Shown piece by piece: positions 8,374 through 48,335 of a stretch of 61,562 nt of DNA. The translations under genes and the position numbers were made by a program. The stretch covers positions 1-61,562 of IMG/VR virus record IMGVR_UViG_3300008119_000566; one strand, written 5' to 3'. Position 1 is the stretch's first letter; every line of letters begins with the position of its first letter. The notes below the pieces were generated by a model, which made no database searches, was not told the DNA's origin, and saw only the letters and a program-made list of their open reading frames with translations. Source of the DNA: a virus.

Positions 8374-9921
8374 TTACTTAATAGAGAATCCAATCTTGCC
8401 AACTGGTCTACGTGTTGCATAGAAGTTGCTACTTGGGTCCATTAAAATCTTACCAGTAAACACTGGTGGATAAATTACTTCAAAGTTAGAGAAGTACGCA
8501 CCACCCGGTGTTGTTTCAGTATCTTTCGTTACCTTTAAGGAAGTCTTAATTTGAAGCATGTTACTGCGTTCTAGGATTGTTCTAAAGAACTTGTCTGTGT
8601 TGGGATTTTTGTTAATTTGATTGGCTATGCCTTGCGCCAATCCAGCTAATAGATGCCAACCAATTCTATAATCTGTACGTTGATTGTCGTCAGTACCTTT
8701 GTAAGTTAATAGCGTATCTAGGCCGTTTGCCTTAAGGTCTTTTTCTCTCACATGTTGTTGATCACTGTCAATAATGGCTAAAATTTTATCAGACTGTACT
8801 CTAGTAATCATATCAATGTGTACACCAATTTGTAATACACCAGCGATAGAACCGTTCCTATACCATATATCAGAACCAGCTACATAATCCATATCAGGAT
8901 TTTTGATCATCATTACAATGTCATACAAATTTTTCATTTCATCAGCATCAAACACACCTTCATAACGCTCTGGGTATTTTGTAATGTCATCTACCATGCC
9001 TGAAATACTGGCTTTTGCTCCGCCAGCTTTGTCCTTACTACTAACACGAATCAAATTATTATCATCAAGAATCAAATAACTATCGTATAGTTTCTCTGCA
9101 GGATCATTAGGATACTCAACTCCTCTTATCTTACCAAACCCGCCTGGCCCACCTGTCATTGCAGTTTCAGCTTCTTGCCAATCACCGGCAAGGAATCGTT
9201 GTTTCATAATTGCCAATGGCGCCGCTGTTTCTCCCAAGTCAACTTCGTAACTCTTTGAATATTGATTGGCTCCAGATACAGGTGTTGTTCGTCCAAATAT
9301 TACATTTTCCAACAATGCAATTACTTGATCTTTGACATCTTGGCCTAGGTCAGCTCTGCCAGCGATTGTGTTAGCAACTTCTCCTGGAACATCATCAGCT
9401 GCCATTTCTGTATTCGTTGGGGCGATACCTACCGGCTTCAAGTTAAGTGCGGCACGTTGCTGTACTCCTGATACTTGATTTTCTTCGCCAGCTTTACCGC
9501 TTAGTTGTTGATACCCAGTTAAGTCTGAGAATAGTTTGGTCTGTAAGAAAATAGGATAAGCACCCGGTTTCTTCTTTGGCTTTAAGGCAATAAAGCCCAT
9601 CATGTTGCCAGTCTTTTCATCTTGGAATACTAGAGCCAGTGCGGCACCAGCTTTATCAGGACTTGATAGTCCCTGTGTTGCTGGCATTGTTTTGAAGTCT
9701 GCAACAGGAATGTTGTTTGCTTCGGCGTATGCAATCAACTCGGCAATAAGGTCTTGCGGTTCTGCAATGTCACCTTGTTGCGGGAACACAATGGCATCTA
9801 CCATCGTAATTACGTTGCCTGCATTATTCTTAAAGGCCACACGTTTTCCACGTCCAGCTTCTTCAGCTCGTCGTGCCATCCCGCCTTCAGATTCAATTAA
9901 TAAAAATTCTTTTGCTCTCAT
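8374..9921 (-). CDS. Putative virion/head-packaged protein with MRAKEF leader
   Basis: 515 aa, no enzymatic motif recognised. The N-terminus MRAKEFLLIE resembles T4 capsid-targeting sequences and contains an L-I-E site of the kind cut by the T4 prohead protease ([LI]-x-E). At least a dozen other proteins in the window share this leader. The body is mixed alpha/beta with no signal peptide or membrane segment. The start codon follows a CTAAATA element by 5 nt, and a terminator follows the gene, so it is probably a single-gene late transcript. Confidence 0.6.
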   Translation of the reverse strand: MRAKEFLLIESEGGMARRAEEAGRGKRVAFKNNAGNVITMVDAIVFPQQGDIAEPQDLIAELIAYAEANNIPVADFKTMPATQGLSSPDKAGAALALVFQDEKTGNMMGFIALKPKKKPGAYPIFLQTKLFSDLTGYQQLSGKAGEENQVSGVQQRAALNLKPVGIAPTNTEMAADDVPGEVANTIAGRADLGQDVKDQVIALLENVIFGRTTPVSGANQYSKSYEVDLGETAAPLAIMKQRFLAGDWQEAETAMTGGPGGFGKIRGVEYPNDPAEKLYDSYLILDDNNLIRVSSKDKAGGAKASISGMVDDITKYPERYEGVFDADEMKNLYDIVMMIKNPDMDYVAGSDIWYRNGSIAGVLQIGVHIDMITRVQSDKILAIIDSDQQHVREKDLKANGLDTLLTYKGTDDNQRTDYRIGWHLLAGLAQGIANQINKNPNTDKFFRTILERSNMLQIKTSLKVTKDTETTPGGAYFSNFEVIYPPVFTGKILMDPSSNFYATRRPVGKIGFSIK

Positions 9922-9926
9922 ACTAA

Positions 9927-9933
9927 TATTTAG
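9927..9933 (-). promoter_or_regulatory. Late-type promoter CTAAATA fused to a stop codon
   Basis: The TAA inside CTAAATA is the stop codon of the bilin reductase gene (9930-9932), and the ATG of the next gene lies 5 nt further on (9921). Transcripts from it would be leaderless. Confidence 0.5.
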
Positions 9934-10613
9934 CGTATTTCAGGGAACAGGCATTCCTGTATGAAATGCTGTACGTCCTCTTCACTAAGCCCTAAACTAA
10001 CCATTACTTTAGGAGTATGAGGGTTACACTTCTGATTCTGTGCGTAGTAATTCTGCGCTTCTGTAGTATCTTCAGCTGCATTGTTGGTTTCAGCGACTGT
10101 GCTTAGATAATGCTCTACTGTAGTTTTTGCTAAAGTTGTCAGTTGTTCTAATTCAGCTTCATCGCTGACATTGCCCGCAGCTACCATACTCTTGCTGAAT
10201 ATGTTAGTAGCCCACTCAGGCAATGCACGTTCTTTACGCCATTCTAGTTTGCTTACTTCTTCTGCAAACCACTGCATCATAGGATGATCAGCATCACCTG
10301 CTTTGCTATAATCGTGAAAGCAACCAGTTATCTTATTCTTGCCAGCGATAACATCAAAGCCATAAATTGGTGCTGGATTATGTGTATGTGGAAAGATGCA
10401 ACAGTGCATCATCCATAAACCTTTTGACTCTCTAGCGTCTACGACGTCCACATGAGCACGACGATAAGAATCGGACCGCCAAACGCGATTAACCCACCCA
10501 GGCTGATTAAAACGATCCATTCCGGGTTCAAATATTTCAGTACCTGTTTCATTAAATTTATCCTCTAACAGATGTTGTATTTCTATTAGTGTGTCCCAAA
10601 CTTTACTCTCCAC
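9930..10613 (-). CDS. pcyX: Ferredoxin-dependent bilin reductase, PcyX/PebS-like
   Basis: 227 aa, normal size for the family. The segment HCCIFPHTHNPAPIYGFD (about 70-87) carries the conserved core of phage PebS/PcyX enzymes, including the Asp of GFD that acts in proton transfer, followed by GCFHDYS. These enzymes reduce biliverdin with electrons from ferredoxin. PcyX from marine phages was reported to give phycoerythrobilin. It overlaps the heme oxygenase gene by 11 nt, so the two are translated together. PebS is the main alternative. No ferredoxin gene is visible here, so the host's would be needed. Confidence 0.8.
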   Translation of the reverse strand: MESKVWDTLIEIQHLLEDKFNETGTEIFEPGMDRFNQPGWVNRVWRSDSYRRAHVDVVDARESKGLWMMHCCIFPHTHNPAPIYGFDVIAGKNKITGCFHDYSKAGDADHPMMQWFAEEVSKLEWRKERALPEWATNIFSKSMVAAGNVSDEAELEQLTTLAKTTVEHYLSTVAETNNAAEDTTEAQNYYAQNQKCNPHTPKVMVSLGLSEEDVQHFIQECLFPEIR

Positions 10614-11148
10614 GATATAAATCCCGCATCATTTTAATAGCATATTCAAATGCTACACGAGCTTCGTCACCTAGGTCATCAGTTAGTGTTTGACGAATTG
10701 CCATCTTCATAGCATCGCCATTTTCAAAGTCATAAAACTTGCCACTGCTAATATGTGCCACTTGTTTCTTAATGATTTGACCACCGAACAAGTCGCCCAT
10801 ATGGCGGCAATATAAATGCGCCTTAACTTTTGCTTTATTCTCTGGATCATTGCCTAGTTTGTGTAAGTATGCTTGGTATTCTAATGTGGCTGGAGTTAGA
10901 TAACAATAACTACCATCATCAAGTTCCACAAAGTCTGCGTGTATAGCACGTAGTCTTGGTAGGTCTGGCATTGTGTCTAGAAACCCTTGGCGCTTACAAT
11001 ACCATTCAATTGGATCGTAAATTGCTAATAGGTTATACAGATAGTTTTTATAATCTTGTTTTTCAATTTTACCGCTAAGTAACATCTTAGCAAATGTTGT
11101 TGTTTCTGCCTCATGGTGGAGGTCTTTAGTGATGTCTTTTAAGCTCAT
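10603..11148 (-). CDS. ho: Heme oxygenase
   Basis: 181 aa. The family features are an N-terminal proximal-His region (DLHHEAE, residues 9-15), YLYNLLAIYDPIE, and the distal-helix motif GDLFGGQ near residue 120 (GDLSGGQ in many homologues). It opens heme to biliverdin, CO and Fe2+. With the overlapping bilin reductase it forms a two-step bilin cassette of the kind known from marine phage contigs. An ALA synthase gene about 30 kb away could feed heme synthesis. It starts with an ATGA overlap to clpS. Confidence 0.88.
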   Translation of the reverse strand: MSLKDITKDLHHEAETTTFAKMLLSGKIEKQDYKNYLYNLLAIYDPIEWYCKRQGFLDTMPDLPRLRAIHADFVELDDGSYCYLTPATLEYQAYLHKLGNDPENKAKVKAHLYCRHMGDLFGGQIIKKQVAHISSGKFYDFENGDAMKMAIRQTLTDDLGDEARVAFEYAIKMMRDLYRGE

Positions 11149-11450
11149 TCTTCTTCCATTTTAATTTGTAATGGAAATCCACTACCACGAGCTAAGTTAG
11201 TTGATTCAACTGCCTTTGCTTCGGCAATCTCAAAACTGTATGTTCCGGCAACACCGCTGCCTTGATCGTGAATCTGGAGAGTGATGTCTCGAGCAGTTTC
11301 TTCTGTGTGTTTGAACACTTCGGTCAAAAGACTAATGACAAAATCCATTGGGGTTGAATCATCGTTTAGAAAGATCACGTTCCAGCGTTTAGGTTCTTGA
11401 ACCTTAATCTTAATCTTCTCGTCTAGTTTAATATCAGTTATTGTTGTCAT
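11145..11450 (-). CDS. clpS: ClpS adaptor
   Basis: 101 aa. The core has RWNVIFLNDDSTPMDFV and the helix region VFKHTEETARDITLQIHDQG, typical of ClpS, which hands N-degron substrates to ClpA. The Asn-Asp-Asp and the conserved Met-Asp-Phe of the substrate pocket are present. No clpA or clpP is visible, so it would redirect the host protease. It sits between heme oxygenase and hsp20. Confidence 0.85.
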   Translation of the reverse strand: MTTITDIKLDEKIKIKVQEPKRWNVIFLNDDSTPMDFVISLLTEVFKHTEETARDITLQIHDQGSGVAGTYSFEIAEAKAVESTNLARGSGFPLQIKMEEE

Positions 11451-11494
11451 TCATGTTCTCCAAGAGTAGGGGAAGTTCCCTTCCCCTTATTATA

Positions 11495-11935
11495 TTACTT
11501 AACCTCGACAATGTCAATCACGCGAGCTTTCTTTTCTTCCGGAATTTCGTGTTCTAACTGTACAGATAGAATACCATCCTGAATTAAGGCGCCCTTGACT
11601 AGCATGTGTTCAGCTAATTGAAGCTTACGTTCAAAATCCCGTGAGCTAAGTCCTCTGTGTAAGTATTGAATATTCTCACCATCTTCGCGTGTGCGAACAC
11701 CGCGAATAGTCAACAAGTTTTGTTCAACTTCAATGTGAATTTCATCTTTCCTAAACCCGGCAACAGCAACCTCGATGACATACCTAGTGTCATCAAGTTT
11801 AATGATGTTGTGTGGGGGATAGTTATTTTGCATTTGATTTGCGATACGATGTTCGAATGTATCGAATAATCTATCGAAACCTACTAGAGCCCTGTTTAGA
11901 GCCTGTGTGTCAAAGCGTGTTATATTTGCGTTCAT
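11495..11935 (-). CDS. hsp20: Small heat shock protein Hsp20 (IbpA-like)
   Basis: 146 aa. The alpha-crystallin domain spans about 35-130 (YVIEVAVAGFRKDEIHIEV; YLHRGLSSRDFERKLQLAEH) as in IbpA-type proteins, with a short C-terminal tail carrying a V-I-D-I motif. It holds unfolded proteins for refolding by DnaK, whose gene is directly upstream. An exact TATAAATA and a 5' leader hairpin precede it. Confidence 0.88.
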   Translation of the reverse strand: MNANITRFDTQALNRALVGFDRLFDTFEHRIANQMQNNYPPHNIIKLDDTRYVIEVAVAGFRKDEIHIEVEQNLLTIRGVRTREDGENIQYLHRGLSSRDFERKLQLAEHMLVKGALIQDGILSVQLEHEIPEEKKARVIDIVEVK

Positions 11936-11969
11936 TTTAATATCTCCTTAAATTAAGCAAGAATAATTT

Positions 11970-12004
11970 ATGCGGCCTCACCTGAGCACCGCATAATATT
12001 TATA
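11970..12004 (-). promoter_or_regulatory. Late promoter TATAAATA plus 5' leader hairpin of hsp20
   Basis: TATAAATA at 11997-12004 is an exact T4 late consensus. Immediately downstream, ATGCGG...CCGCAT with an inner CTCA/TGAG stem folds into a two-part hairpin (11970-11994). The AAGGAG ribosome site lies further on and outside the hairpin, so a classic RNA thermometer that buries the site is not evident. Confidence 0.6.
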
Positions 12005-12018
12005 ACGTCTGTGTGTGT

Positions 12019-23994: not shown

Positions 23995-24321
23995 TTATAC
24001 TCTAAAACTTTCGCCACATCCACAACGATCACGTTCATTGGGATTGATAAAATCAAATCCCTCATTGAGCCCGTTACGCACCCAATCCATTGTTAAACCA
24101 TTTAGATAAGCTAGGCTTTTTGCATCCACTAGCACAACAAAGTCTTTTTGGGCAAAATTAGTTACACCCACTTCGGCTATGTATTCGTCCACATATTCTA
24201 TAGTGTATGCCAGACCACTGCAACCTGTGGTTCTTACACCTATACGAATACCCACGCCTTTACCGCGCTTGTCCAAATTTTGTTTGATGCGTTTACTTGC
24301 TGTGTCGGTTACGATAATCAT
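23995..24321 (-). CDS. iscA: A-type Fe-S carrier IscA/HesB
   Basis: 108 aa. The three conserved Cys are in TTGCSGLAY and CGCGESF. It delivers Fe-S clusters to target proteins. It overlaps iscU by 29 nt and is co-directional, so the pair is co-translated. The C-terminal SFRV matches many bacterial homologues. Confidence 0.9.
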   Translation of the reverse strand: MIIVTDTASKRIKQNLDKRGKGVGIRIGVRTTGCSGLAYTIEYVDEYIAEVGVTNFAQKDFVVLVDAKSLAYLNGLTMDWVRNGLNEGFDFINPNERDRCGCGESFRV

Positions 24322-24679
24322 TTACGGCCGCTTTGATAGCATCTTCTGCTAATATACTACAATGTATCTTCACTGGTGGTAATGCTAGTTCTTCAGCAAT
24401 CTCAATGTTTTTAATTGCTCCAGCTTCGTCAAGTGTTTTGCCCTTGACCCACTCTGTAACAAGCGAACTGCTTGCAATTGCTGATCCGCACCCGTAAGTT
24501 TTGAATTTTGCATCAGTAATAAGACCTGTAACGTTATCAACCTTAATTTGTAACTTCATCACATCACCACAAGCCGGTGCACCAACCATGCCAGTGCCCA
24601 CTGTAGGATCATCTTTAGCAAAAGATCCCACATTGCGCGGATTTTCGTAATGATCAATTACTTTTTCAGAATATGCCAT
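24293..24679 (-). CDS. iscU: Fe-S scaffold IscU
   Basis: 128 aa, the full bacterial length. Cluster ligands are present in APACGD, YGCGSA and KIHCS, with the Asp after the first Cys. The HscA-binding LPPVK motif is intact (ALPPVKIHCS). The sequence is very host-like, suggesting recent transfer. No IscS, HscA or HscB is in the window, so it would depend on host partners. Confidence 0.93.
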   Translation of the reverse strand: MAYSEKVIDHYENPRNVGSFAKDDPTVGTGMVGAPACGDVMKLQIKVDNVTGLITDAKFKTYGCGSAIASSSLVTEWVKGKTLDEAGAIKNIEIAEELALPPVKIHCSILAEDAIKAAVNDYRNRHSK

Positions 24680-25211
24680 TTATATGCTCCCAGTTCATAA
24701 TTTTCCATTGATTTTTTAAATAACTTTTTTTGTCTGCTTGGTAGTCCAATGCCCATGCATGTTCCCACCAGTCTACTAATACTACAATATCTTTTTTAAT
24801 TTCGTGATTCACAATGGTTTTAATCTTGCCATCCTTAGCCAGATAAACCCATCCGCTGCCTTGCACACCCATTGCCACTTTGAGAAACTCTTCCTTGAAT
24901 TTGACAAAAGTTTTATAGTGTGTTTCAATAAACTCAGCTATCTTGCCAGTTGGATCATTACTGTCACTTGGCTCTTGATACTGTTGGAATAAAATGTTAT
25001 GAAGAAATGCTCCAGCTTCATTAAAATTAGGATCCCCTTCGCCAGCATTGAAACGTTTGGCGTAAGTCTTAGCAAGATTTTCGTAATGATAATCTATTGT
25101 GGCTTTGGAGATGCTAGGGCTCAAATCATTCACACCGTAGGGCAAGGGTAGTATTTTTAAAGATACTGGTCTGCCTTCAGTAATAAATTGTCTGATAAAG
25201 TTATAGCTCAT
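24666..25211 (-). CDS. sodB: Fe/Mn superoxide dismutase with N-terminal extension
   Basis: 181 aa. Ligands are His in TIDYHYENLAK, His in GAFLHNIL, and Asp/His in VDWWEHAW; the C-terminal YLKNQWKIMNWE matches the family. Typical enzymes begin near LPLPY, but here about 19 residues precede it (MSYNFIRQFITEG), containing I-T-E like the head-protein leaders elsewhere in this window. It overlaps nrdA (ATGA) and iscU. Confidence 0.88.
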   Translation of the reverse strand: MSYNFIRQFITEGRPVSLKILPLPYGVNDLSPSISKATIDYHYENLAKTYAKRFNAGEGDPNFNEAGAFLHNILFQQYQEPSDSNDPTGKIAEFIETHYKTFVKFKEEFLKVAMGVQGSGWVYLAKDGKIKTIVNHEIKKDIVVLVDWWEHAWALDYQADKKSYLKNQWKIMNWEHINGIF

Positions 25212-30141: not shown

Positions 30142-30467
30142 CCGGCTCTTTTTGCCGTTGCTCGTTTGGCCATTTGTCCAACGCTGTTGTCAGTGCCTCC
30201 ACGAGTTTGGTCAGATTCAGCCTCTTGTGTGTTCAATTTGACACCTTCAGGACCAAAGCTACAAAGTTCTTTAAATTGAGGATTTGCATCGTAGTAAATG
30301 CCAAATGTGTTTGGATTATCAATGCGTTGACCGATTACGTTTTCAGTCTCGTTGCCGAGTGCTTGCCAACTAATGGTCTCTGGATTTTCTTCGCTGTCAG
30401 CGGCATTTTTCTTTGCCGCTAACAGGTCGAATAAAGGATCTCTACTTTCTTTAATTACTTTTTTTTT
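30138..30467 (-). CDS. -1 frame continuation of the upstream virion protein
   Basis: About 108 open codons with no usable start codon near the beginning, in the -1 frame relative to the gene ending at 30455. The join is a run of nine A (30459-30467 as T on the plus strand), reading A-AAA-AAG in frame, a classic bacterial slippery site. The encoded sequence looks real (RDPLFDLLAAKKN; FGIYYDANPQFKEL). It is either made by programmed frameshifting or is the true C-terminus hidden by one missing A in the assembly. Confidence 0.65.
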   Translation of the reverse strand, partial: KKKVIKESRDPLFDLLAAKKNAADSEENPETISWQALGNETENVIGQRIDNPNTFGIYYDANPQFKELCSFGPEGVKLNTQEAESDQTRGGTDNSVGQMAKRATAKRAG

Positions 30468-31381
30468 GAAAGCATTTGTGCTAGTCTGCGGCTATATTGC
30501 ACAGACTCACGCATTTCTCTGCCTGCTGCTTCTGCTGGAATTTCAGCTTCAGCTTCGCCTTCTGCTGGAGGAAGTGCTTCAGCTCCTGGAGCGGCTCCCA
30601 TTGTTGTTGGTGGCTCACTACCTGTTAGGATACTCACTGCCTTTGCTAGGTTTTGACGGTTAGTCTCTAATACTGTGTAAATTTCATCTAGTGCTGGGCG
30701 GACGGCTTGTTCAAATGACCCGCTAATGTCAGAACCCATTTCGTCTCTTATAGAGTCTAATAAATCTAGCATAGCTTCAGATTTCATAGCTGCCACATCT
30801 TCTAACCAACCTGTGATGCGGTCAACCATGTCTTTGGAAGCCATAATTAATTCGGCTTTTTCTTCTTCGCCTTCAGTGATTAACAATGTTTGGATTAGTG
30901 CGTTAGCTGTGCCTTCATCTAAATCGTAACGTACGATTAGTTCGCTTTTGATATCATCTGCATCTTCTTCAATCATCAAACGTGAACGTGCTTGTTGCGT
31001 CCAAGTTGATGGGATAGAAAACTGTCTAGTGAAATGATTTAATGCAATCATTGCTTCGTTATATTCTTTCAAGTTCTTTGCCTTTTTCTTCTTTGGCTTC
31101 TCATCTACTTTATCTTCGTCTTCGATCTCAACACGTTCTGCAATCTCTTGATTGATTACGTCCAAGAACATTTTGTTCTTATGGTACTTGTGATCCGTAT
31201 GAACCGCGTCGTAGCTTTCGTTTGTTTCAAACTGGTGTTGAGCTGTACGTAGTTTATTACGTGCATCTTCTAGCTGCTCCATAGTGAACTTGTTCAAGTC
31301 CAACCTGTAGCCAAACTTCTGTGCTAGGCTCTCGTTTAATCTCTTGCTACTTACTGGTTTTGAAAAATCTGTTATCTGCAT
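30455..31381 (-). CDS. Putative virion/core protein with MQITDF leader
   Basis: 308 aa as read. The N-terminus has MQITDF and an L-N-E site at about 17, similar to the head-protein leaders here. TMEQLEDARNKLRTAQHQFE and KNKMFLDVINQEI match a family I recall in T4-like marine phages. A Lys-rich linker, a helical middle and an acidic Ala/Glu/Pro segment follow, then RESVQYSRRLAQMLSKKK. It probably continues in the -1 frame (see 30138-30467). A scaffold or core role is inferred. Confidence 0.65.
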   Translation of the reverse strand: MQITDFSKPVSSKRLNESLAQKFGYRLDLNKFTMEQLEDARNKLRTAQHQFETNESYDAVHTDHKYHKNKMFLDVINQEIAERVEIEDEDKVDEKPKKKKAKNLKEYNEAMIALNHFTRQFSIPSTWTQQARSRLMIEEDADDIKSELIVRYDLDEGTANALIQTLLITEGEEEKAELIMASKDMVDRITGWLEDVAAMKSEAMLDLLDSIRDEMGSDISGSFEQAVRPALDEIYTVLETNRQNLAKAVSILTGSEPPTTMGAAPGAEALPPAEGEAEAEIPAEAAGREMRESVQYSRRLAQMLSKKK

Positions 31382-31411: not shown

Positions 31412-31848
31412 CTGAATACGTTTTTAAACGAACTGGAAATCTTGTCCTTGTAGAACTTGGTTTTCTCAGTGGTTATTTCGTAGCGCCAAAGAAACGTATC
31501 TCTGCGCACTGGATCTGTGGTTTTATTGTAAAAATATCTAAAATAAGTAGCATCTGTCTCGTTTGCAGAGTACTTCCTATCTAAATCTTTGATTTCCATT
31601 AGCTGCTGAATCCTAGTAGTTTCGTGGAATTTTGCGGATATCAGCGCACATACTTTTAAGTTGAATGTGTCAACTATTGATGGCCCGCTTGGATACTTTT
31701 TTAACAAGTCCCATCCGTTATTTTTATTAGGCCTAACTATGTAGTCATGATAGCCCACGGCCTTGTTGGGCAACAGAGTAAACGGTAACTTGTCTTTGAA
31801 GTCTTCGTAAAATGATTCTAGTTGTCTTGCTGATTTTTTAATATTCAT
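31408..31848 (-). CDS. Conserved phage protein
   Basis: 146 aa, mixed alpha/beta, rich in Lys and aromatic residues (GYHDYIVRPNKNNGWDLL; YFRYFYNKTT). No domain recognised. It overlaps the upstream gene by 11 nt. Its stop codon TAA lies inside an ATAAATA element that may serve the next gene downstream. Confidence 0.55.
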   Translation of the reverse strand: MNIKKSARQLESFYEDFKDKLPFTLLPNKAVGYHDYIVRPNKNNGWDLLKKYPSGPSIVDTFNLKVCALISAKFHETTRIQQLMEIKDLDRKYSANETDATYFRYFYNKTTDPVRRDTFLWRYEITTEKTKFYKDKISSSFKNVFR

Positions 31849-32038
31849 TTGCTACTACACTTGGGTCTTCGTGCCCTATCTTAATTAACAAACTTTTACG
31901 AATCATTGTTTCTGCAATAACACGTTCACGTTCTGTTAACGCTGCCATCTTTACGGGACGGCTAACTTTAGATAAGAAGTCCTGCTCCTCATTTGTAGTG
32001 TATATAGCAAAGTCACCAATGAGTTCGTTTATTTTCAT
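31838..32038 (-). CDS. Small phage protein with MKINELI leader
   Basis: 66 aa, largely helical (LTERERVIAETMIRKSLLIKI). The N-terminus MKINELIGDF fits the M-[RK]-x-x-E-[FL] leader pattern, although no clear [IL]-x-E site follows. It overlaps both neighbours (ATGA upstream). Function unknown. Confidence 0.55.
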   Translation of the reverse strand: MKINELIGDFAIYTTNEEQDFLSKVSRPVKMAALTERERVIAETMIRKSLLIKIGHEDPSVVANEY

Positions 32039-32655
32039 AGACCAGCTAACTTTCTAATATCAGCTATGGATTTGTTTGCTGACTTGCTGACTTTAGCATC
32101 AGTGCCAGCAACACGTTTGGCCAGTGCTGTAATATATGCTGACTCGTCCATTCTTGATGGTTGTGGCATTTCATCTTCTTCATCTGACATGCCTGAACCG
32201 TGGAACATGTCCGCTAGTTTATAAGCATAACTTTCAGAGTCTGAACTGTTGTCCATGCGATCTGCAACAAAGTTTAATGCTTTAATGAATACTGCTTTAT
32301 CGTCACTAGAGTCGTCATCGTACGGTGCATACTCACTGTTCATCCAGTCGTTGAACATATCTTCAATCTTATCGCCTGAACCTTCTGTAGTAGCTGTGTC
32401 AATGTGAATTTGTGCGCCTGGTTTGATCTCAGGCGCTTGTGATTGACCAGGTGCCGCTGCTTGTGTATCTGGAGTTGGGTCATAGGTCAAGTTGCCCTGT
32501 TCGTCAGGTTTAACTGCCATTGGATTCTTTTTAAGATCAACAGTGGTCATTGTGGATCCTTCTTGATCCGTAAAACTTAACGACTGTCCAGGTTTGTAGT
32601 CTTTAATAGTGGCTACTGAACCGCCTGCTTCGCCTAATATATCTTTAATTTTCAT
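32035..32655 (-). CDS. Acidic virion-type protein with MKIKDILGE leader
   Basis: 206 aa. The leader MKIKDILGEAGG contains L-G-E followed by Ala, a good match to T4 prohead-protease sites. The rest is low-complexity (Pro/Gln/Asp-rich to about 120), then a helical acidic part (SDDKAVFIKALNFVADRMD) and ends with a basic helix. Probably an internal head protein. Confidence 0.6.
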   Translation of the reverse strand: MKIKDILGEAGGSVATIKDYKPGQSLSFTDQEGSTMTTVDLKKNPMAVKPDEQGNLTYDPTPDTQAAAPGQSQAPEIKPGAQIHIDTATTEGSGDKIEDMFNDWMNSEYAPYDDDSSDDKAVFIKALNFVADRMDNSSDSESYAYKLADMFHGSGMSDEEDEMPQPSRMDESAYITALAKRVAGTDAKVSKSANKSIADIRKLAGL

Positions 32656-33355
32656 TGTTTGTCTCCAGGCTCAGTTTGTTTGCCTTTAGTATACTTATAT
32701 GTTCGCGTAGTCGGTCGATATATCCTTTGCTACGCAATACTTTAAATGTGATGTTTTCCACACTTAATTCGCCTTCCCGATCCAACCCTTGTTGGCGTAG
32801 ACGTTTGATATTTTCCATAACTTGTAGTGATGCTTGTAAATTATCACTACGCAATGCTGCTCGAATTGATCCCACAAAGTGTTTGTACTTTACTTTGACT
32901 TCAGCTCGATCCACTGTGTCTTCTTTACGCTCGGGGATTTTTAACCATTTATCATCAAGTACGCTGTACACACCTACGCTGTGATGAACTTGCTGTGCAT
33001 CTTGTACATACACTTCAGTGTGTATGCCTTTCAATTTGATGCTGTGTTGAAAGTTGTATTGATTTTTCTTTGCATCAAATAGTTGTTTCATTAAACGTTC
33101 ACGTTCTTTTGGAATGTTAACAACTAAATGTAAATCTAAGTCTGAATTACGGCTAAATGTGTATCCTGCATTACTGCCGCTGATTGTGATATCTTGTAAC
33201 CCTAATGGTTCAATGCCAATAAAGTCTATGAAATTCTGTGCTATTTCTAGTAGATGAAACCTAACATCTTTTTTTAGTTGCCCTTTAGACCACAACTTGG
33301 GGTTTAATCGTTTGTGGAATACAATGGCTGTGCTGACTAGATCTTCTTGTTGCAT
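32645..33355 (-). CDS. Nucleotidyltransferase-like protein
   Basis: 236 aa. The motif GSNAGYTFSRNSDLDLHLVV (about 56-75) is the Gly-Ser...Asp-x-Asp signature of the polymerase-beta-like nucleotidyltransferase fold, with another acidic residue in TEVYV near 105. This resembles MNT/antitoxin-type or CCA-adding cores. Similar genes occur in T4-like marine phages. The target (RNA, protein or small molecule) is unknown. It starts 7 nt after a TTAAATA element. Confidence 0.7.
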   Translation of the reverse strand: MQQEDLVSTAIVFHKRLNPKLWSKGQLKKDVRFHLLEIAQNFIDFIGIEPLGLQDITISGSNAGYTFSRNSDLDLHLVVNIPKERERLMKQLFDAKKNQYNFQHSIKLKGIHTEVYVQDAQQVHHSVGVYSVLDDKWLKIPERKEDTVDRAEVKVKYKHFVGSIRAALRSDNLQASLQVMENIKRLRQQGLDREGELSVENITFKVLRSKGYIDRLREHISILKANKLSLETNNEN

Positions 33356-36480: not shown

Positions 36481-37011
36481 TTATTTAATACCAATAGTCA
36501 TGTATCTAGTGTACGCAGTCTCGGGATCTTTTAAATCTTTTTCACCAGAGTACAACAGTTTAGTAAACTTGAACTCGTTTAAATCTTCATCACGAGTTTG
36601 CAGTGCTACTAAAGTGCCGTTGGGTATGTTATCAAACCATCCATCGTTCTTCATATCGTTGACACTGGTGTTGATAACAAGACTTGGGGCAGTTGCTTGT
36701 CTATAATCAAGGTCGTTGGCATCTTTGATCATGGGTTCTATCTTGTCGTCAATGCCTAACTTTTTGGCAAGTTTGTTACCAGTTGACAGTACTTTTCTAT
36801 TGATGTCAACGTTTATGATTCTATCAAATTTGATGTTGTTCTTGTTTATGAGGAACAAACTTAGATTGCCATACCAACTGCCCAATACATATATTGAGTT
36901 GAAATCTTTGTGTATCTTGGAGACTTCAGAAATCAACCAAGACTTACACGTTATTAGATCATCAGTAAAGCTGCCTGCTAGTGTGCTAGGGCTAAATTCA
37001 TAGATTCTCAT
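36481..37011 (-). CDS. Methyltransferase-like protein with MRIYEF leader
   Basis: 176 aa. SIYVLGSWYGNLSLFL (about 37-52) and IINVDINRKVLSTGNKLAKK (about 64-83) have the layout of a class I methyltransferase Rossmann fold. NTSVNDM is at the position of motif IV. The leader MRIYEF matches the putative head-packaging leader. The substrate is unknown and it may be a degenerate, non-catalytic member. Confidence 0.6.
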   Translation of the reverse strand: MRIYEFSPSTLAGSFTDDLITCKSWLISEVSKIHKDFNSIYVLGSWYGNLSLFLINKNNIKFDRIINVDINRKVLSTGNKLAKKLGIDDKIEPMIKDANDLDYRQATAPSLVINTSVNDMKNDGWFDNIPNGTLVALQTRDEDLNEFKFTKLLYSGEKDLKDPETAYTRYMTIGIK

Positions 37012-37439
37012 TAATCAGCAGATTTATTTTTGTCTTTTTCAGTGATTGGGCCACCAGTTACCCAAGCCTTGCAACTGCGTGAGCCAGCGCATTTGAAATG
37101 TAAAAAGTTGCAGTAACCAAGATCAGCCAAATTGATACTGGCATTGGCATCCACAGAAGACTCGTCGCCTTTGATACCTTTGCTGATACACTTTCTCATA
37201 CTGTCGCTGACATCAAATGCCGCACAATTGCCACACAACATTGTCTTAGCTGTTGCGGTAGTCACATTGAAAATCTTTGCACTCTTGTTCCAGTAATCTT
37301 CAGCCTTGTTGGGATTGGCAGGACCATAGTGATATTCATCTATGGCCTTCTGTCGATTTTTTAAATTGACATCTATGTTATGAGTTGCAGTAGGACAGCC
37401 TTGTTCAATAGCTTCCAGCAAGTTTATATAGTTTCTCAT
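37011..37439 (-). CDS. Cys-rich virion-type protein with MRNYINLLE leader
   Basis: 142 aa from the ATG at 37439, which forms an ATGA overlap with the upstream stop. The leader MRNYINLLEAIEQ has L-L-E followed by Ala. The C-terminal half has CGNC, a C after MRK, and GYCNFLHFKCAGSRSCKAW, a zinc- or disulfide-type cluster I recall from T4-like marine phages, followed by GGPIT. Confidence 0.65.
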   Translation of the reverse strand: MRNYINLLEAIEQGCPTATHNIDVNLKNRQKAIDEYHYGPANPNKAEDYWNKSAKIFNVTTATAKTMLCGNCAAFDVSDSMRKCISKGIKGDESSVDANASINLADLGYCNFLHFKCAGSRSCKAWVTGGPITEKDKNKSAD

Positions 37440-38413
37440 TTGTTTTTGGCCTTGCCAGCTTTCATATTGGCCATCCAATGTGCCAGTTCACCTTTGCGGC
37501 CACCCTGTTTAGCAACCTTGCGTAGTGTACTTACACTTGCTTTAGTAGGAACACCGTGTCGCTTGCTGTCGCCCTTATCTTGTGGATTACGACCATCAGC
37601 AAAGTTTTCTTTTATTTTATTGCCTTGTACAGCAGTAGTTTTTTCAGGATCATCTGCCAATCCTATCTTGGCATTGGGCATAAACTTGTTTATGGATTTG
37701 CGTGTGAGCGGACCCAATACGCCATCAAGATCCAAGTTAGCGTTGTACTTGGCATTTAACATTTTTTGTATGCGTAGAATTGCTTCTTTCTTATTGGAGT
37801 CTTCAGCTATGCTTTCGCCACCTCCGCCATCTCCACCACCACCGCCATCTCCACTATAACCAGCATCATACCCGTACCAACCATACGGTCCTGGACCATA
37901 TGCTGCGCCTCTGGGTTTACGTTTACGTTTTCGTGCTTCATCAACATTATAAGTTGGATCAACTTTTTGTCTAGGCATACCTTTAGGTTGTTTTTTGATC
38001 TGACTTTCTGCTAGTATGGCTGCACGTTGAAACAGTTCTGGATTCATCTTGCCCCACAAGCGCATGACCACTGCGGCTTTGGCATTGGCTTCATTCTCAT
38101 GCTCGCTGCCATCTTTACCACTTTCATCATTTAGTCTGCCATCCACATCTTGCTTGTGGTGTACTAACTCATGTGCTAGTGTGCGTAGCACATCCATGAT
38201 GTGTCTGTTGCCAATAGTAATCTCAATGCCGCCACCAGGCATGTAACCTCCAAAGCTTCTACGTTGGCTTGCCAGTTTAGGATTGCGTACTAGTTTGATT
38301 TGCGGAGGACGTTCCAAGCCAATGCGATCACAGGCAAAGTCTACAAATGCTTTGATGATTGGAAGACTTCCATCTTCTCTTCCTGGTTCTTCAGTTAATT
38401 CGTTAAATCTCAT
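37436..38413 (-). CDS. Zinc metallopeptidase with peptidoglycan-binding repeat and MRFNELTE leader
   Basis: 325 aa. The leader has L-T-E (residues 6-8). A zinc-protease motif HELVHHKQD (about 83-91) with a downstream Glu (NEANA) follows. A Gly-rich linker (GDGGGGGDGGGG) separates it from a peptidoglycan-binding fold (LDGVLGPLTRKSINKF). The C-terminal module (SKRHGVPTKASVSTLRKVAK...LAHWMANMKAG) is one I know from T4-like head proteins. If packaged in the head it could act on entry. Confidence 0.7.
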   Translation of the reverse strand: MRFNELTEEPGREDGSLPIIKAFVDFACDRIGLERPPQIKLVRNPKLASQRRSFGGYMPGGGIEITIGNRHIMDVLRTLAHELVHHKQDVDGRLNDESGKDGSEHENEANAKAAVVMRLWGKMNPELFQRAAILAESQIKKQPKGMPRQKVDPTYNVDEARKRKRKPRGAAYGPGPYGWYGYDAGYSGDGGGGGDGGGGESIAEDSNKKEAILRIQKMLNAKYNANLDLDGVLGPLTRKSINKFMPNAKIGLADDPEKTTAVQGNKIKENFADGRNPQDKGDSKRHGVPTKASVSTLRKVAKQGGRKGELAHWMANMKAGKAKNK

Positions 38414-41047: not shown

Positions 41048-41067
41048 TATTTTTATCCTGTATCCTA

Positions 41068-41083
41068 TATTTAGTGTTAAATA
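41068..41083. promoter_or_regulatory. Back-to-back late-type promoters
   Basis: CTAAATA on the minus strand (41068-41074) serves the adhesin gene with a 20-nt leader. TTAAATA on the plus strand (41077-41083) ends 7 nt before the ALA synthase ATG at 41091. Confidence 0.5.
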
Positions 41084-41090
41084 CTCCACT

Positions 41091-43368: not shown

Positions 43369-43375
43369 CAACAAG

Positions 43376-43822: not shown

Positions 43823-43843
43823 GTATACTCCGTTTAATAAGAG

Positions 43844-44778: not shown

Positions 44779-44826
44779 TTTTTAACCTCTTTTGATTGTG
44801 TTACAGACCCAACCTATGAAGTGTAT

Positions 44827-44855
44827 ATTGTACACTTAAAAACTATTTAAGTCAA
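44827..44855 (-). promoter_or_regulatory. Sigma-70-like promoter of the HNH gene
   Basis: TTGACT (44850-44855), a 17-nt spacer and TACAAT (44827-44832), with an AGAGG ribosome site before the ATG at 44778. The -35 lies inside the 3' end of the upstream gene. Confidence 0.7.
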
Positions 44856-45398
44856 TATTGATTGAACGAATTCGTTTCCGGAACGCTCTACGGCCGAATT
44901 CCATTGATCTTTGAGATCGTTGTCAAATACACTTTCATGATCGGCTGAAGCAGTTAGCCAACTGAAACTGTGATCTCGTTGTGATGTGCCTTTGAGTTCT
45001 TCTGCTAATTGTCTTGGTGCCCAACCGCATAATCCCAAAAACAATCTAAACTGTCTAGGTGCATCGCCATCGCCTAAACGCACTAACAAATCTTCTGCGC
45101 TGCTAATTGAAAAGTCTTCGTTGATCTGCATGGTGTTGGTACATGACCATTCACTGCTGTGTAGCATACTAAGAGCTTTGATGTTAACTGGACCACCTAA
45201 ATAAATGTAGCCAGGTATATTAAGACGAGCGATTCCCACTTGTTCACTAAACTCAGACACAGTCATTTCACTGCGCTTGTTCAGTATAAGTCCCATGCTA
45301 CCATTAGCATGATGTTCAGTTACGAAGATCACACTCTTATACCAAAAGTTACTTTTTAGTTTAGGTGGTGCAATTAGTAGTGTTCCAGATAGATCCAT
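44847..45398 (-). CDS. YqgE/AlgH-family protein (UPF0301)
   Basis: 183 aa. SGTLLIAPPKLKSNFWYKSV, MGLILNKRS, YLGGPVN and FLGLCGWAPRQLAEEL follow the YqgE/AlgH family, whose bacterial function is unclear. Phage copies exist. It starts within the stop of the GH19 gene (TAATG). Confidence 0.8.
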   Translation of the reverse strand: MDLSGTLLIAPPKLKSNFWYKSVIFVTEHHANGSMGLILNKRSEMTVSEFSEQVGIARLNIPGYIYLGGPVNIKALSMLHSSEWSCTNTMQINEDFSISSAEDLLVRLGDGDAPRQFRLFLGLCGWAPRQLAEELKGTSQRDHSFSWLTASADHESVFDNDLKDQWNSAVERSGNEFVQSILT

Positions 45399-45724
45399 TA
45401 TGCCACATTCATTGATTGTTTAAAAGCGGCATAACGCATCTTGCGATCATCTAATCCGTTATATCCGCCGTTTATTACTTTAGTTATAGCATTAACATCA
45501 TCCCAGTTACTGACTCTGGGTTGCACATTGGCTTTCCAAAAATACACAGCAGTCTTTGCGGCCATAGCCGGTTGTTCAACTAGGTCTGGATCTTTTTCTA
45601 ATGGCATTCCCAACGCAGCACCCGCCGCACGATAATTACTGCGACCAGTTAGCTGAATGTAACCTCGACCCCTATATCGATACCCGTCACCTTTTTGTAC
45701 GTTGCCCAAATCTCTACGACCTTC
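45398..45724 (-). pseudogene. C-terminal part of GH19 lysin after an in-frame amber codon
   Basis: The frame continues without shift after the TAG at 45725-45727: EGRRDLGNVQKGDGYRYRGR, then GYIQLTGRSNY and VINGGYNGLDDR, all typical of GH19 chitinase/lysozyme. Homologues I recall have Tyr-Glu-Gly-Arg here, so the TAG most likely replaces a Tyr codon (TAC or TAT). No ATG start is available, so the segment is made only by readthrough, or the stop is an error or a mutation. Confidence 0.7.
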
Positions 45725-46735
45725 CTATCCTCGTTGTGCAGTGCTTGGCCCCCATATTTCACTTAGGTATCTAAAGCCGCCACTCTCGTGACTGCATTGT
45801 GCAAGGAACGCTGCCAGCTCTTTGCCTTTAATGCCTTGTCCCATTGCTTCTTTGGCCAGTAAGTCTCTTGATTCTTTATCGCCCAATGCACTTACTGCAA
45901 TCTTACCTTTAAACTCTTCTGGTTTAGCTTTTTCTAATTTGCTTGCTTTTGGGTTATCGGCAACTGCCTTGTTCACTGCTTCAACTGTTTCAGGTGTTGC
46001 AGTTCCTGTTGCTTGTAATTTGTTATCTGCTTGGAACTTTGAAATGGCAGCACTTGTGTACTTGCCAAGTATACCATCGTCCTTTGTTCTTCCAACATCA
46101 TAGCCCAACGCCATCAATGCACGTTGCAAATTAACAACTTCAACACCCCTACTGCCCATCTTAGGACCAGTTGGTACTTGAATATATCCGCCATAACGGC
46201 CACCACCGCCAGCGGCAATTCCAGCAGGTGCCGGTTGTACTGTATTTGCTCCAGCTTTTACCTTTGCGGCAGCAGTGCCATACCAACCCATAGGAGCATG
46301 GATACCATCGCCACCAGACACACTTAGTTTGCCCATGTCAATTACTTCAACACCACTTGGTATATTTGATTGTATTAGTTTTCTTAGTTGGTTTCTATCT
46401 TTTGCAAATTTGGGGTTATCTGTTTCGGCAAATAGAACATAGAACACTTTGCATTTCTTTTGTAGAAGTTCACTAAGCATACTGTTGACTCTACTCACTA
46501 CCTGTTGCTTGTCAGGTTTCATCATGTCGTTGGCGCCAGCACTCAATACCACTGTGCTTCCTGGACTGACCTTGTCAATGGCATCGTCATTGGCACCATT
46601 CATTGCACTTCTGCCGTTGGTTGCTAAAGTGATAAATTTACCTGAACCAGCAATGGCCACTGCATGACTATCGCCAATGGCATATATTTTTGTAGCCGTT
46701 TCTGGCGGTGTTTCTTTAAACTCAAAAAATCTCAT
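45725..46735 (-). CDS. SGNH hydrolase-peptidoglycan-binding-GH19 protein with MRFFEF leader, N-terminal part
   Basis: 336 aa to the amber codon. After the leader MRFFEFKE comes an SGNH-type hydrolase (YAIGDSHAV with Ser; SAGANDMMKP with Asn). Then follow a Gly-rich linker, a peptidoglycan-binding fold (LQRALMALGYDVG...SAAISKFQ), and the start of a GH19 domain (FLAQCSHESGGFRYLSEIWG) with a catalytic Glu. The whole would be a multi-domain wall enzyme. AAGGATAACAT precedes the ATG. Confidence 0.75.
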   Translation of the reverse strand: MRFFEFKETPPETATKIYAIGDSHAVAIAGSGKFITLATNGRSAMNGANDDAIDKVSPGSTVVLSAGANDMMKPDKQQVVSRVNSMLSELLQKKCKVFYVLFAETDNPKFAKDRNQLRKLIQSNIPSGVEVIDMGKLSVSGGDGIHAPMGWYGTAAAKVKAGANTVQPAPAGIAAGGGGRYGGYIQVPTGPKMGSRGVEVVNLQRALMALGYDVGRTKDDGILGKYTSAAISKFQADNKLQATGTATPETVEAVNKAVADNPKASKLEKAKPEEFKGKIAVSALGDKESRDLLAKEAMGQGIKGKELAAFLAQCSHESGGFRYLSEIWGPSTAQRG

Positions 46736-46744
46736 ATGTTATCC

Positions 46745-47389
46745 TTATGCTAGCGGGTTAAGTTGTTTTCCACTACTTGCGTATTTTTCCCAGTGCAAAT
46801 GATTGCCTGTACTAAATCCTGTACTGCCCACACGGCCTATGATGTCGCCCTTCTTGACCACATCGCCCAGTGTTGCTTCTATTTTAGACATGTGCATAAA
46901 TCTATGACGATGTCCATCTGATGTAACCATCTCAACATAGTTACCAGCTGAAGGGTTGTTTGGTTGTACTAGCGTGATCTTGCCATTGTCTGGAGCAACG
47001 ATTGGTGTGCCTTCTGGAGCTGCAATATCCACTCCTGGGTGTGGGACTTTATTACCATTAGGACCAGTTACTACTCGTCCGTACTCACCAGACAAACGAC
47101 CTTTGGTTGGCAGTATGTCGCTGCCAGTTGCCGGCTCTGGAGTGTCTCCTGAATCAGCATCAAACTTTTTCAATGCCATTGAGTCTGGCTTCTTAACGTC
47201 TTTGGGATCAATACCTTTTTCTGCTGCGTCTTTGGCTGCTTGTGTATAAGGTCCCATGATACCATCAATACCATCATTATTAGGACCGTATGTGCCCAAA
47301 TCGTAACCTTTGGCTTTTAATTCTTTTTGCAGTTTAACTACTTCTGGATCGCTTTGCGCTTCAACTACACGAAACTCTCTGAATCTCAT
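46745..47389 (-). CDS. M23 peptidase with peptidoglycan-binding domain and MRFREF leader
   Basis: 214 aa from the ATG at 47389 (TAATG with the upstream stop; AGGGGA as ribosome site). The leader MRFREFRVVEAQ has V-V-E followed by Ala. A peptidoglycan-binding fold lies at about 18-60. The LytM/M23 domain has HPGVDIAAPEGTPI (His, Asp), HRFMHM and GNHLHWE (His-x-His), so all zinc ligands are present. It cuts peptide cross-links in the wall. Confidence 0.85.
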   Translation of the reverse strand: MRFREFRVVEAQSDPEVVKLQKELKAKGYDLGTYGPNNDGIDGIMGPYTQAAKDAAEKGIDPKDVKKPDSMALKKFDADSGDTPEPATGSDILPTKGRLSGEYGRVVTGPNGNKVPHPGVDIAAPEGTPIVAPDNGKITLVQPNNPSAGNYVEMVTSDGHRHRFMHMSKIEATLGDVVKKGDIIGRVGSTGFSTGNHLHWEKYASSGKQLNPLA

Positions 47390-47694
47390 TATTGATTCCC
47401 CTTCCACACTGGCAGTGGCCCACCGTAGTTGCCACCCTTAACTTTTTTACCTTTGATCTTTTGACGTTTACGATTGATAGTAAATTTCTTTTCAGTTGCC
47501 CTAGCTCTAAATCCTTGGCTGATACAACTGCTTAACTGGCTAGCGCCTAGTTCACTGTTAGGTTTAGTGCTCTTACACAGTTTGCGACTGGCCTTGCCCG
47601 ATTCAGCCAAACTACCGCCGCAAACTTCACAAAATTGTTCTGTGCCTTCAGCTACATCTTGATTGACTTGTGAGGTAAATTCTTTTGCTCTCAT
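47389..47694 (-). CDS. Zinc-ribbon virion-type protein with MRAKEF leader
   Basis: 101 aa from the ATG at 47694 (ATGA overlap). The leader MRAKEFTSQVNQDVAEG has V-A-E followed by Gly. FCEVCGGS and a later Cys pair could bind zinc. KPNSELGASQLSSCISQGFR and GGNYGGPLPVWKG are patterns I recall from T4-like marine phages. Strongly basic C-terminal half, suggesting DNA contact. Confidence 0.65.
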   Translation of the reverse strand: MRAKEFTSQVNQDVAEGTEQFCEVCGGSLAESGKASRKLCKSTKPNSELGASQLSSCISQGFRARATEKKFTINRKRQKIKGKKVKGGNYGGPLPVWKGNQ

Positions 47695-48335
47695 TTCATA
47701 ATCCATGTATCTGGTATTTGATCGTATTCTTTAACCCACATGTCATGTAGCTTTTTTCCGCTTATGCCATGTGACTTAGCAATACGTGTCATTATATCAT
47801 CAATAATATCATATACATCGTCTTCGCTGGCATTTTGTAAGGTTGTCTTCTTAGCTAGCAACGCAGATTTGAGTTCTGGAACTGCTTGATTGTCCTTTGC
47901 ATGATCCATATTCTCTATAATCATGTCTACCATTTCTTCAACACTTTCACAGTTCCAACGTCTTAGTGCTTTGGCTTTAGGTGTTGGGCGGCCTTTTTCA
48001 TCCTTCATTGGACCTTTGTTACCACTCATCCTAGCACAGAAACTCTTGCGTCGCTTGGCTGCTTTACTGCCAGGTTTTAATTTACTGGGTTTAGTAGTAA
48101 CCGCTGTTTGTAACTTGCTACCAGGATTTTCTCGTCGATAGGCTTTGACAGCTTTGCGACTCAATCCATCAGTCTTATCTTGACGATTGGCTTTGTTCCA
48201 GTCTTCGTCGATACTTTCATCGTGCTTCTTCCCAGCACAATGGGCCTTTTGGCTGAACCCTTTAGGGTTGCTACAGTTGATACTCTTTTTGTATTTTTGA
48301 GTCCACTGTTCGGTAATAAATTCTTTTGCTCGCAT
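47691..48335 (-). CDS. Basic virion-type protein with MRAKEFITE leader
   Basis: 214 aa. The leader MRAKEFITE closely mirrors the T4 internal-protein leader (MKTYQEFIAE). It has INCSNPKGFSQKAHCAGKK and a DUF6321-like core (RRKSFCARMSGNKGPMKDEK), then a helical tail. Highly basic, as expected for a head protein bound to DNA. The start is 4 nt after TTAAATA. Confidence 0.7.
   Translation of the reverse strand: MRAKEFITEQWTQKYKKSINCSNPKGFSQKAHCAGKKHDESIDEDWNKANRQDKTDGLSRKAVKAYRRENPGSKLQTAVTTKPSKLKPGSKAAKRRKSFCARMSGNKGPMKDEKGRPTPKAKALRRWNCESVEEMVDMIIENMDHAKDNQAVPELKSALLAKKTTLQNASEDDVYDIIDDIMTRIAKSHGISGKKLHDMWVKEYDQIPDTWIMK

What the first reader, a model, noticed from the sequence alone, without database searches (positions are those of the whole stretch)
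8374..48335. A family of about a dozen proteins with a T4-like capsid-targeting leader, including peptidoglycan and protease enzymes
Unrelated proteins share a short N-terminus: MRAKEFLLIE (8374-9921), MRAKEFITE (47691-48335), MRAKEFTSQ (47389-47694), MRFREFRVVE (46745-47389), MRFFEFKE (45725-46735), MRFNELTE (37436-38413), MRNYINLLE (37011-37439), MRIYEF (36481-37011), MKIHQLLE (38410-39072), MKIKDILGE (32035-32655), MKINELI (31838-32038), MQITDF (30455-31381). Most have an [ILV]-x-E within about 20 residues. T4 internal head proteins start MKTYQEFIAE and are cut after [LI]-x-E by the gp21 protease. By inference these proteins are loaded into the prohead and processed. An M23 peptidase, a GH19/SGNH protein, a zinc metallopeptidase and a methyltransferase-like protein would then be injected with the DNA.
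Basis: partly seen in the sequence, partly recalled or inferred. Interest (0 to 1): 0.88.

Follow-up and report, generated by a model that had tools for sequence, protein, structure and literature searches.

The report
Head-packaging tags on phage enzymes
A large aquatic phage appears to tag many unrelated proteins, including enzymes, with a short removable address label of the kind phage T4 uses to load proteins into its head for delivery into the host cell, and a model of that label picks out enzymes already detected in particles of related phages.

Summary
The leaders are real and beyond chance. A motif matrix trained on leaders from other environmental contigs passes 9 of 94 called ATG starts in the window, against 1 of 280 internal methionines and 0 of 533 starts from SPO1, phiKZ and E. 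coli stretches. The matrix never saw T4, yet its five T4 hits include all three known internal head proteins. In cyanophage S-CREM2, with a published virion proteome, all four hits are virion proteins and 0 of 167 undetected proteins pass. A second proteome gave weak support, 1 of 3 hits. The window is a fragment without the gp21-type protease, but a syntenic 372-kb relative has it, as do all seven fetched records over 300 kb.

Corrections: 9 of the 12 named proteins have [ILV]-x-E at residues 8-17; 30455, 36481 and 45725 are weak; an iron superoxide dismutase (24666-25211) was missed.

New: homologous segments begin and end at [LIV]-x-E more often than background, suggesting polyproteins cut by the prohead protease. 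Packaging, cleavage and injection are inferred for this phage. Known principle (T4 capsid targeting sequence), new variant.

The parts
47691..48335 (-). DUF6321 multi-module protein; leader MRAKEFITE|Q (leader DNA 48309-48335); further [LIV]xE at residues 44 (IDE|D) and 141 (IIE|N)
   Evidence: matrix 22.8; PF19846 9.8e-17; homologous segments start at residues 7 and 42-46; the DUF6321 match in S-CREM2 lies in gp137, a virion protein
47389..47694 (-). small protein, IPI-like longer leader MRAKEFTSQVNQDVAE|G
   Evidence: matrix 8.9, gapped 10.7; compare T4 IPI MKTFKEFTSTTTPVSTITE; G025 homologue MRAQEFIKEE
46745..47389 (-). M23 peptidase with PG-binding region; leader MRFREFRVVE|A
   Evidence: PF01551 4.1e-26; matrix 5.7, gapped 6.7, below threshold; four close relatives keep it
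45725..46735 (-). SGNH-like plus PG-binding plus start of a GH19 domain; weak leader MRFFEFKE
   Evidence: PF01471 1.3e-14; gapped score 8.8, ungapped 0.6; another phage has GH19 behind MRATDFIIE
45398..45709 (-). rest of the GH19 domain behind an in-frame TAG
   Evidence: PF00182 1.8e-12; interrupted frame in the window, open in L301-L303
38410..39072 (-). multi-module protein; leader MKIHQLLE|M
   Evidence: gapped score 10.5, ungapped -5.1; all five homologues reaching the N-terminus, one of them 100% identical, have a leader; segment boundaries at IGE|Q and VDE|A
37436..38413 (-). HExxH metallopeptidase-like multi-module protein; leader MRFNELTE|E; internal LAE|S, VDE|A, IAE|D, IKE|N
   Evidence: gapped 13.1, ungapped 2.8; 24 of 103 homologous segments start at residue 267, the I of IKE|NFADG; homologues start MKAREILTE, MRAKEFLAE and others
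37011..37439 (-). 142-aa protein, leader MRNYINLLE|A
   Evidence: matrix 9.1; hydrophobic-hydrophobic-E|A/S kept in 73 of 79 homologues, the other six being wrong or truncated start calls
36481..37011 (-). methyltransferase-like protein, MRIYEF, no cut site in the leader
   Evidence: gapped 11.0, ungapped 3.6; some homologues have a complete leader, e.g. MRIQHLLE|T; Pfam matches all below cut-off
32645..33355 (-). nucleotidyltransferase-like protein without a leader in the window
   Evidence: homologue S-CREM2 gp156 is a virion protein with 6 unique peptides; G025 homologue starts MRFTELSE|K, score 10.8
32035..32655 (-). 206-aa protein, leader MKIKDILGE|A
   Evidence: matrix 13.4; L006 has MKIKDILGE|D; no Pfam
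31838..32038 (-). 66-aa protein MKINELIGD: leader-like but no E at the cut position
   Evidence: matrix 8.0; homologue L006 MKISELLTN
30455..31381 (-). probable virion protein; MQITDFSKPVSSKRLNE|S, not a standard leader
   Evidence: phrog_14154 head and packaging, 4.8e-10; LNE|[SN] kept in G025 and G001 homologues; matrix -5.4
24666..25211 (-). Fe superoxide dismutase with N-terminal extension MSYNFIRQFITE|G (leader DNA 25176-25211)
   Evidence: PF02777 6.4e-21; several solved SODs begin to align at query residues 18-20 with chain residues 3-4; extension with cut site in 80 of 80 kept phage homologues, matrix -14.5
8374..9921 (-). 515-aa orphan, leader MRAKEFLLIE|S (leader DNA 9892-9921)
   Evidence: matrix 11.7; leader kept with a one-residue deletion in L308; no Pfam

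Best explanation
The shared N-terminus is a T4-type capsid targeting sequence. The precursor docks into the scaffolding core of the prohead through the 8-19 residue leader; the phage's S77 protease cuts after the E of [L/I/V]-x-E, releasing the mature protein inside the head; DNA is packed on top and the proteins leave with it at infection. Shown here: the leader and its statistics, its reuse on unrelated bodies, the protease and the matching gp23 cut site in large relatives, and agreement with a published virion proteome. Inferred: docking, cutting and injection in this phage. Likely cargo: DUF6321 DNA-associated-looking proteins, a superoxide dismutase, cell-wall enzymes and a metallopeptidase. 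My odds per step: leader is a head-targeting signal 0.85; cut by S77 0.8; delivered into the host 0.65.
For: Matrix trained on L001-L084 leaders only (41 nine-residue and 20 ten-residue types): T4 hits at 8 or more are gp61.1, IPII, IPIII, alt.-3, IPI of 251 starts. Final counts: window 9/94 starts vs 1/280 internal Met; five S77 relatives 48/1604 vs 4/5254; SPO1+phiKZ+E. coli 0/533 vs 2/2367. S-CREM2: 4 of 4 hits among 218 scored CDS are virion proteins (cytidylyltransferase, kinase, SAM hydrolase, gp13), 0/167 non-virion, p = 3.5e-4 against the 28 non-structural virion proteins (proteome Table 3 of PMC10665884). S77 in T4 (control), four Kyanoviridae and 7 of 7 fetched IMG/VR records over 300 kb. 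gp23 of G001, G002, G003, G025 keeps L-x-E|A/S-type sites ahead of the mature start. T4 CTS rules: first 10 residues suffice, residues 8 and 10 govern processing (PMC9026906, passages of section 10).
Against: No S77 in the window record, and only 11 of 42 IMG/VR records searched have it, most being fragments. HTVC008M, a T4-like phage with S77, has 0/175 starts at 8 or more and 2/759 internal; Syn9 1/196; G038, a 400-kb relative, only 5/393. In S-SZBM1 2 of 3 matrix hits, including the strongest (23.4), were not detected. In S-CREM2 a plain regex does not separate virion from non-virion (5/28 vs 14/167, p = 0.11), the rank test is marginal (p = 0.046), and gp137 and gp156, the virion homologues of window proteins, score -13.4 and 1.1. 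The window SOD scores -14.5.
Confidence: 0.8

Rival explanations
1. The N-terminus is a targeting signal for the head but is not usually cut in this lineage; the [LIV]-x-E is part of the docking helix.
For: 31838 (MKINELIGD) and its homologue (MKISELLTN) lack E; in T4 an aspartate at position 10 blocks cutting but not targeting (PMC9026906).
Against: E is kept when leader length changes (8374 vs L308; 38410 vs L413) and when the leader letters change (37011 family); gp23 sites of the same type persist.
Confidence: 0.08
2. The leader sorts proteins to some other place, such as the portal, tail, membrane or a replication compartment.
For: The window alone gives no location; no direct localisation data.
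Against: T4 IPI, IPII and IPIII, which are inside the head, are recovered blind; no structural protein of S-CREM2 (0 of 23 scored) but 5 of 28 non-structural virion proteins pass with one gap allowed; leaders are not hydrophobic, mean Kyte-Doolittle -0.57 to 0.32 in six examples.
Confidence: 0.07
3. Chance, start-codon composition, a translation-initiation element, or simple paralogy.
For: M[KR] starts are common; a simple regex is not significant in several single genomes; one body cluster of 55 dominates the 150 leader proteins.
Against: 0/533 control starts; codons and upstream DNA vary; 60 body clusters.
Confidence: 0.03

Closest known systems
Capsid targeting sequence (CTS) of phage T4 internal proteins IPI, IPII, IPIII (and Alt)
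   Same: Short N-terminal propeptide with [LI]-x-E, unrelated bodies behind it, S77 protease in the genome of large relatives
   Different: Many more tagged proteins per genome (G025 18 of 478 starts, T4 5 of 251), mostly a nine-residue rather than ten-residue form, enzymes as cargo, and proteins built of several segments with repeated sites
Virion-associated enzymes of T4-like cyanophages (NMNAT/cytidylyltransferase, kinases, SAM hydrolase)
   Same: Enzymes in virions; those of S-CREM2 at matrix 8 or more all carry the leader
   Different: The S-CREM2 paper does not mention a targeting signal (words targeting, leader, N-terminal absent); cargo in the window differs (SOD, M23, GH19/SGNH, DUF6321)
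Propeptides of ejection proteins in giant Salmonella phage SPN3US and phiKZ relatives
   Same: Prohead protease removes N-terminal propeptides of internal proteins (PMC5694885, passages)
   Different: Those propeptides are mostly over 100 residues; phiKZ has no S77 match and 0 of 277 starts pass
Polyvalent proteins of phages (Iyer and colleagues, PMC5512222, passages)
   Same: Multi-domain proteins thought to be delivered with DNA, possibly proteolysed
   Different: Proposed processing there is by an internal peptidase domain; here segment boundaries coincide with the prohead protease motif

Membership tests
T4-type capsid targeting sequence | Short N-terminal leader shared by proteins with unrelated bodies | tested here: met
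   9/94 window starts vs 1/280 internal Met; 150 proteins in 60 body clusters
T4-type capsid targeting sequence | [L/I]-x-E cut site at the end of the leader | tested here: met
   9 of 12 named proteins with [ILV]-x-E at residues 8-17, plus the SOD; not met in 45725, 36481, 31838
T4-type capsid targeting sequence | Recognisably the same motif as the T4 internal proteins | tested here: met
   IPI 8.7, IPII and IPIII 11.8 by a matrix that did not include T4; internal Met in T4 1/788
T4-type capsid targeting sequence | gp21-type S77 protease in the same genome | tested here: inconclusive
   none in the 61.6-kb fragment; present in syntenic G025 and in 7 of 7 fetched records over 300 kb
T4-type capsid targeting sequence | Tagged proteins are inside the virion | tested here: inconclusive
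   not testable for this phage; S-CREM2 4 of 4 hits in virions, S-SZBM1 1 of 3
T4-type capsid targeting sequence | Leader is removed at the E | not testable with these tools
   needs N-terminal proteomics
T4-like (Straboviridae/Kyanoviridae-type) phage | gp23-type capsid and S77 protease | tested here: inconclusive
   head genes are not in the fragment; G001, G002, G003, G005 have both; G025 has S77 and a gp23-like protein next to it
Prohead-protease polyprotein (proposed here) | Segment boundaries coincide with [LIV]-x-E | tested here: met
   starts 117/2469 vs 36 expected, ends 123/2505 vs 35; strictest reduction 46/1613 vs 24.8 and 64/1724 vs 24.9
Prohead-protease polyprotein (proposed here) | Segments are physically separated in virions | not testable with these tools
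   needs virion proteomics

The most novel reading that the evidence does not exclude
Many of these tagged proteins are polyproteins: strings of interchangeable segments, each beginning behind a prohead-protease site, loaded into the head as one chain through a single leader and cut apart inside it. The site travels with the segment, so any segment works either right behind the leader or in the middle of a chain. Such phages would have an open, recombining loading system for injected proteins, including a superoxide dismutase.
Probability: 0.45. Interest if true: 0.86.

Novelty: new variant of a known kind. Interest (0 to 1): 0.72.

Why it matters
How non-structural enzymes reach the virions of T4-like cyanophages is not explained in the papers I saw. 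If the leader is their ticket, cargo could be predicted from sequence alone across uncultured phages, as the S-CREM2 test suggests. It would turn a set of hypothetical and metabolic genes, now read as functions expressed during infection, into proteins delivered at the first minute of infection, and it would show how far the T4 loading principle has been elaborated in large aquatic phages.

Tried and rejected
A plain regex for the leader: weak, not significant in several single genomes and not in S-CREM2 (p = 0.11); replaced by the matrix. Enrichment of [LIV]-x-E over whole leader proteins: none (13.6 against 13.8 per 1000 residues), so only the position at segment boundaries is informative. 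CWxGY segment: does not follow the boundary rule (3 of 14 internal contexts). AlphaFold2 of 37011-37439 (mean pLDDT 44.9) and 8374-9921 (34.7): too poor, no fold search made. megablast of window 25000-49500 against phage records: no match. Scans with the M23 and the 515-aa protein found four relatives each, too close to inform except L308. S-CREM1 and S-SCSM1 proteomes: full lists are not in the main text, so not tested. The five segment patterns were chosen after seeing the alignments; searches are the unselected version.
Full report
What was checked. The window is a 61,562-base virus record, a fragment. All twelve N-termini are at the stated places. Nine of twelve have [ILV]-x-E ending at residues 8-17; 45725, 36481 and 31838 do not. 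A simple pattern is only weakly better than chance in the window, 6 of 28 M[KR] starts against 1 of 34 internal M[KR] (p = 0.028). I therefore built a matrix from 41 nine-residue and 20 ten-residue leaders of L001-L084, loci fetched with the DUF6321 protein. Those loci belong to the same broad phage group as the window, so the matrix is not independent of it, but it contains neither T4 nor the cyanophages used below. With one gap allowed, 9 of 94 called ATG starts in the window reach 8, against 1 of 280 internal Met; five S77-bearing relatives 48 of 1604 against 4 of 5254; G038 5 of 393 against 1 of 1463; SPO1, phiKZ (first 240 kb) and two 50-kb E. coli K-12 stretches 0 of 533 against 2 of 2367. 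Codons and upstream DNA differ between leaders, so this is not a DNA element.

Is it the T4 signal? Ungapped, the matrix passes five of 251 T4 starts: gp61.1, IPII, IPIII, alt.-3 and IPI, with 1 of 788 internal Met. IPI, IPII and IPIII are the known internal head proteins. T4 work says that the first ten residues of IPIII are enough for packaging, that residues 4 and 7 matter for targeting and 8 and 10 for cutting, and that gp21 cuts after L/I-x-E (PMC9026906, section 9 read, passages of section 10).

Is there a protease? Not in the window. The S77 model finds T4 gp21 (4e-113) and S-CRM01, HTVC008M, P-SSM2, Syn9 and, just over the cut-off, Maribacter phage Molly, but not SPO1 or phiKZ. Of 42 IMG/VR records searched, 11 have it (4 of 16, 0 of 8, 7 of 18), among them all seven fetched records over 300 kb. 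G025 (372 kb) shares 43 of 107 called window ORFs, most in one stretch at 248-318 kb, and has S77 next to a gp23-like gene. The gp23 proteins of G001, G002, G003 and G025 keep YLAE|A, HLIE|S, LLAE|S and LMES-type sites ahead of the mature start.

Independent virion data. S-CREM2 has a published virion proteome (Table 3 of PMC10665884; section 18 read). I scored 218 of its 219 annotated CDS. Four reach 8: cytidylyltransferase gp154 (MKNFSSFLTE), gp13 (MKDLHSFLTE), kinase gp14 (MKRFDAFLTE) and SAM hydrolase gp6 (MKDFDSFLEE). All four are virion proteins; 0 of 167 undetected proteins pass (p = 3.5e-4 against 28 non-structural virion proteins); with a gap, 5 of 28, 0 of 23 structural and 0 of 167. 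Weaker results on the same data: lower thresholds let non-virion proteins in (4 or more: 5 of 28 against 3 of 167), the rank test gives p = 0.046, and a plain regex p = 0.11. The paper does not use the words targeting, leader or N-terminal. The DUF6321 match lies in gp137 and the homologue of window 32645-33355 is gp156; both are virion proteins, with 4 and 6 unique peptides, but neither has a scoring leader. In S-SZBM1 (Table 1 of PMC9146016, passages; my own gene calls, 27 of 30 virion proteins matched) three starts pass: cytidylyltransferase SSZBM1_140, the only enzyme detected, and SSZBM1_191 and a CP12 gene, not detected. The S-CREM2 paper also says kinases were found in S-CRM01 virions (passage); the S-CRM01 gene annotated as a kinase carries MISFDQFLSE, score 15.2; that they are the same protein is my inference.

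Where the leader is sparse. HTVC008M has S77 but no start at 8 or more (0 of 175), Syn9 one of 196, G038 five of 393. The system is expanded in some large relatives (G025 18 of 478, G003 14 of 425) and nearly absent elsewhere.

Cargo. In the window: DUF6321, M23 peptidase, SGNH/PG-binding/GH19, an HExxH metallopeptidase-like protein and several orphans. The Fe-SOD is the clearest addition: in several solved SODs the alignment begins at query residues 18-20 with chain residues 3-4, leaving a phage-specific extension that ends ITE|G. 80 of 80 kept homologues have it, with the caution that one of six search peptides was MSYNFIRQ and that only the best 80 of 211 were kept. More distant phage SODs have other leaders, MYNFIKTIAE, MYNFIKSLNE, MRDIIQLLE and MRDLIQLLE. 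The SOD leader does not score on the matrix (-14.5). In relatives, leader proteins include an amidoligase-like protein, a cytidylyltransferase-like protein, GH19 and a gp88-like protein by Pfam.

Segments and sites. Several proteins are strings of segments that recur elsewhere alone behind a leader. Before the segment, [LIVMF]-x-E stands in 11 of 12 internal contexts of DWNK, 15 of 15 of WTQKYK, 31 of 36 of FADG, 13 of 18 of AAW and 3 of 14 of CWxGY, against 4.9% background (patterns chosen after inspection). Without choosing segments, an all-against-all comparison of 3713 proteins shows homologous stretches starting at [LIV]-x-E in 117 of 2469 non-redundant cases against 36 expected per position, and ending on it in 123 of 2505 against 35; [LIV]-x-D, [LIV]-x-K and [AGS]-x-E show no comparable peak. 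With one case per segment type the excess is 46 of 1613 against 24.8 and 64 of 1724 against 24.9. Leader proteins as a whole are not richer in the motif. The reading that these are polyproteins cut in the prohead is mine and untested.

Literature. Full-text searches of the open library: capsid targeting sequence with cyanophage, one paper; with metagenom, none; prohead protease, polyprotein, phage and ejection proteins, seven papers with three of four terms, of which I opened three in passages. Subscription journals are mostly not held.

Noticed in passing
window 45398-46735 (-): The GH19 domain is interrupted by an in-frame TAG; near-identical L301 and L302 and the 87-91% relative L303 have the frame open. 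Strain variation or assembly error is not decided.
   Followed up: partly
window 2757-8255 (-): Curli-like gene cluster (CsgG-, CsgF- and repeat-protein-like by reading), comparable to the csgF/csgG genes annotated in pelagiphage HTVC008M and syntenic in G025.
   Followed up: no
window 10603-13887 (-), 40983-42290 (+), 23995-24679 (-): By reading: heme oxygenase-like, ClpS-like, Hsp20 and DnaK genes; a 5-aminolevulinate-synthase-like gene; IscU- and IscA-like genes. Not searched in a family library.
   Followed up: no
T4 NC_000866 18966-19130 (L473): T4 gp61.1, a 54-aa hypothetical protein, starts MKTFKEFIKE and is the top matrix hit in T4, so it may be an unrecognised internal head protein.
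   Followed up: partly
L013, L019, L026, G003 188672-190183: Repeated GVAEG linkers in large multi-segment proteins.
   Followed up: partly
S-SZBM1 122311-122640; G005 89159-89473; L020; L053: A small conserved protein with one of the strongest leaders (MKSFxxFISE, then NIxGDFNGNLY-like) not detected in the S-SZBM1 virion.
   Followed up: no
S-CREM2 gp12 (L470 7704-10313, -): A virion protein annotated Cas9-like has LRFASFMAEA about 20 residues from its annotated start, perhaps a leader behind a wrong start.
   Followed up: no
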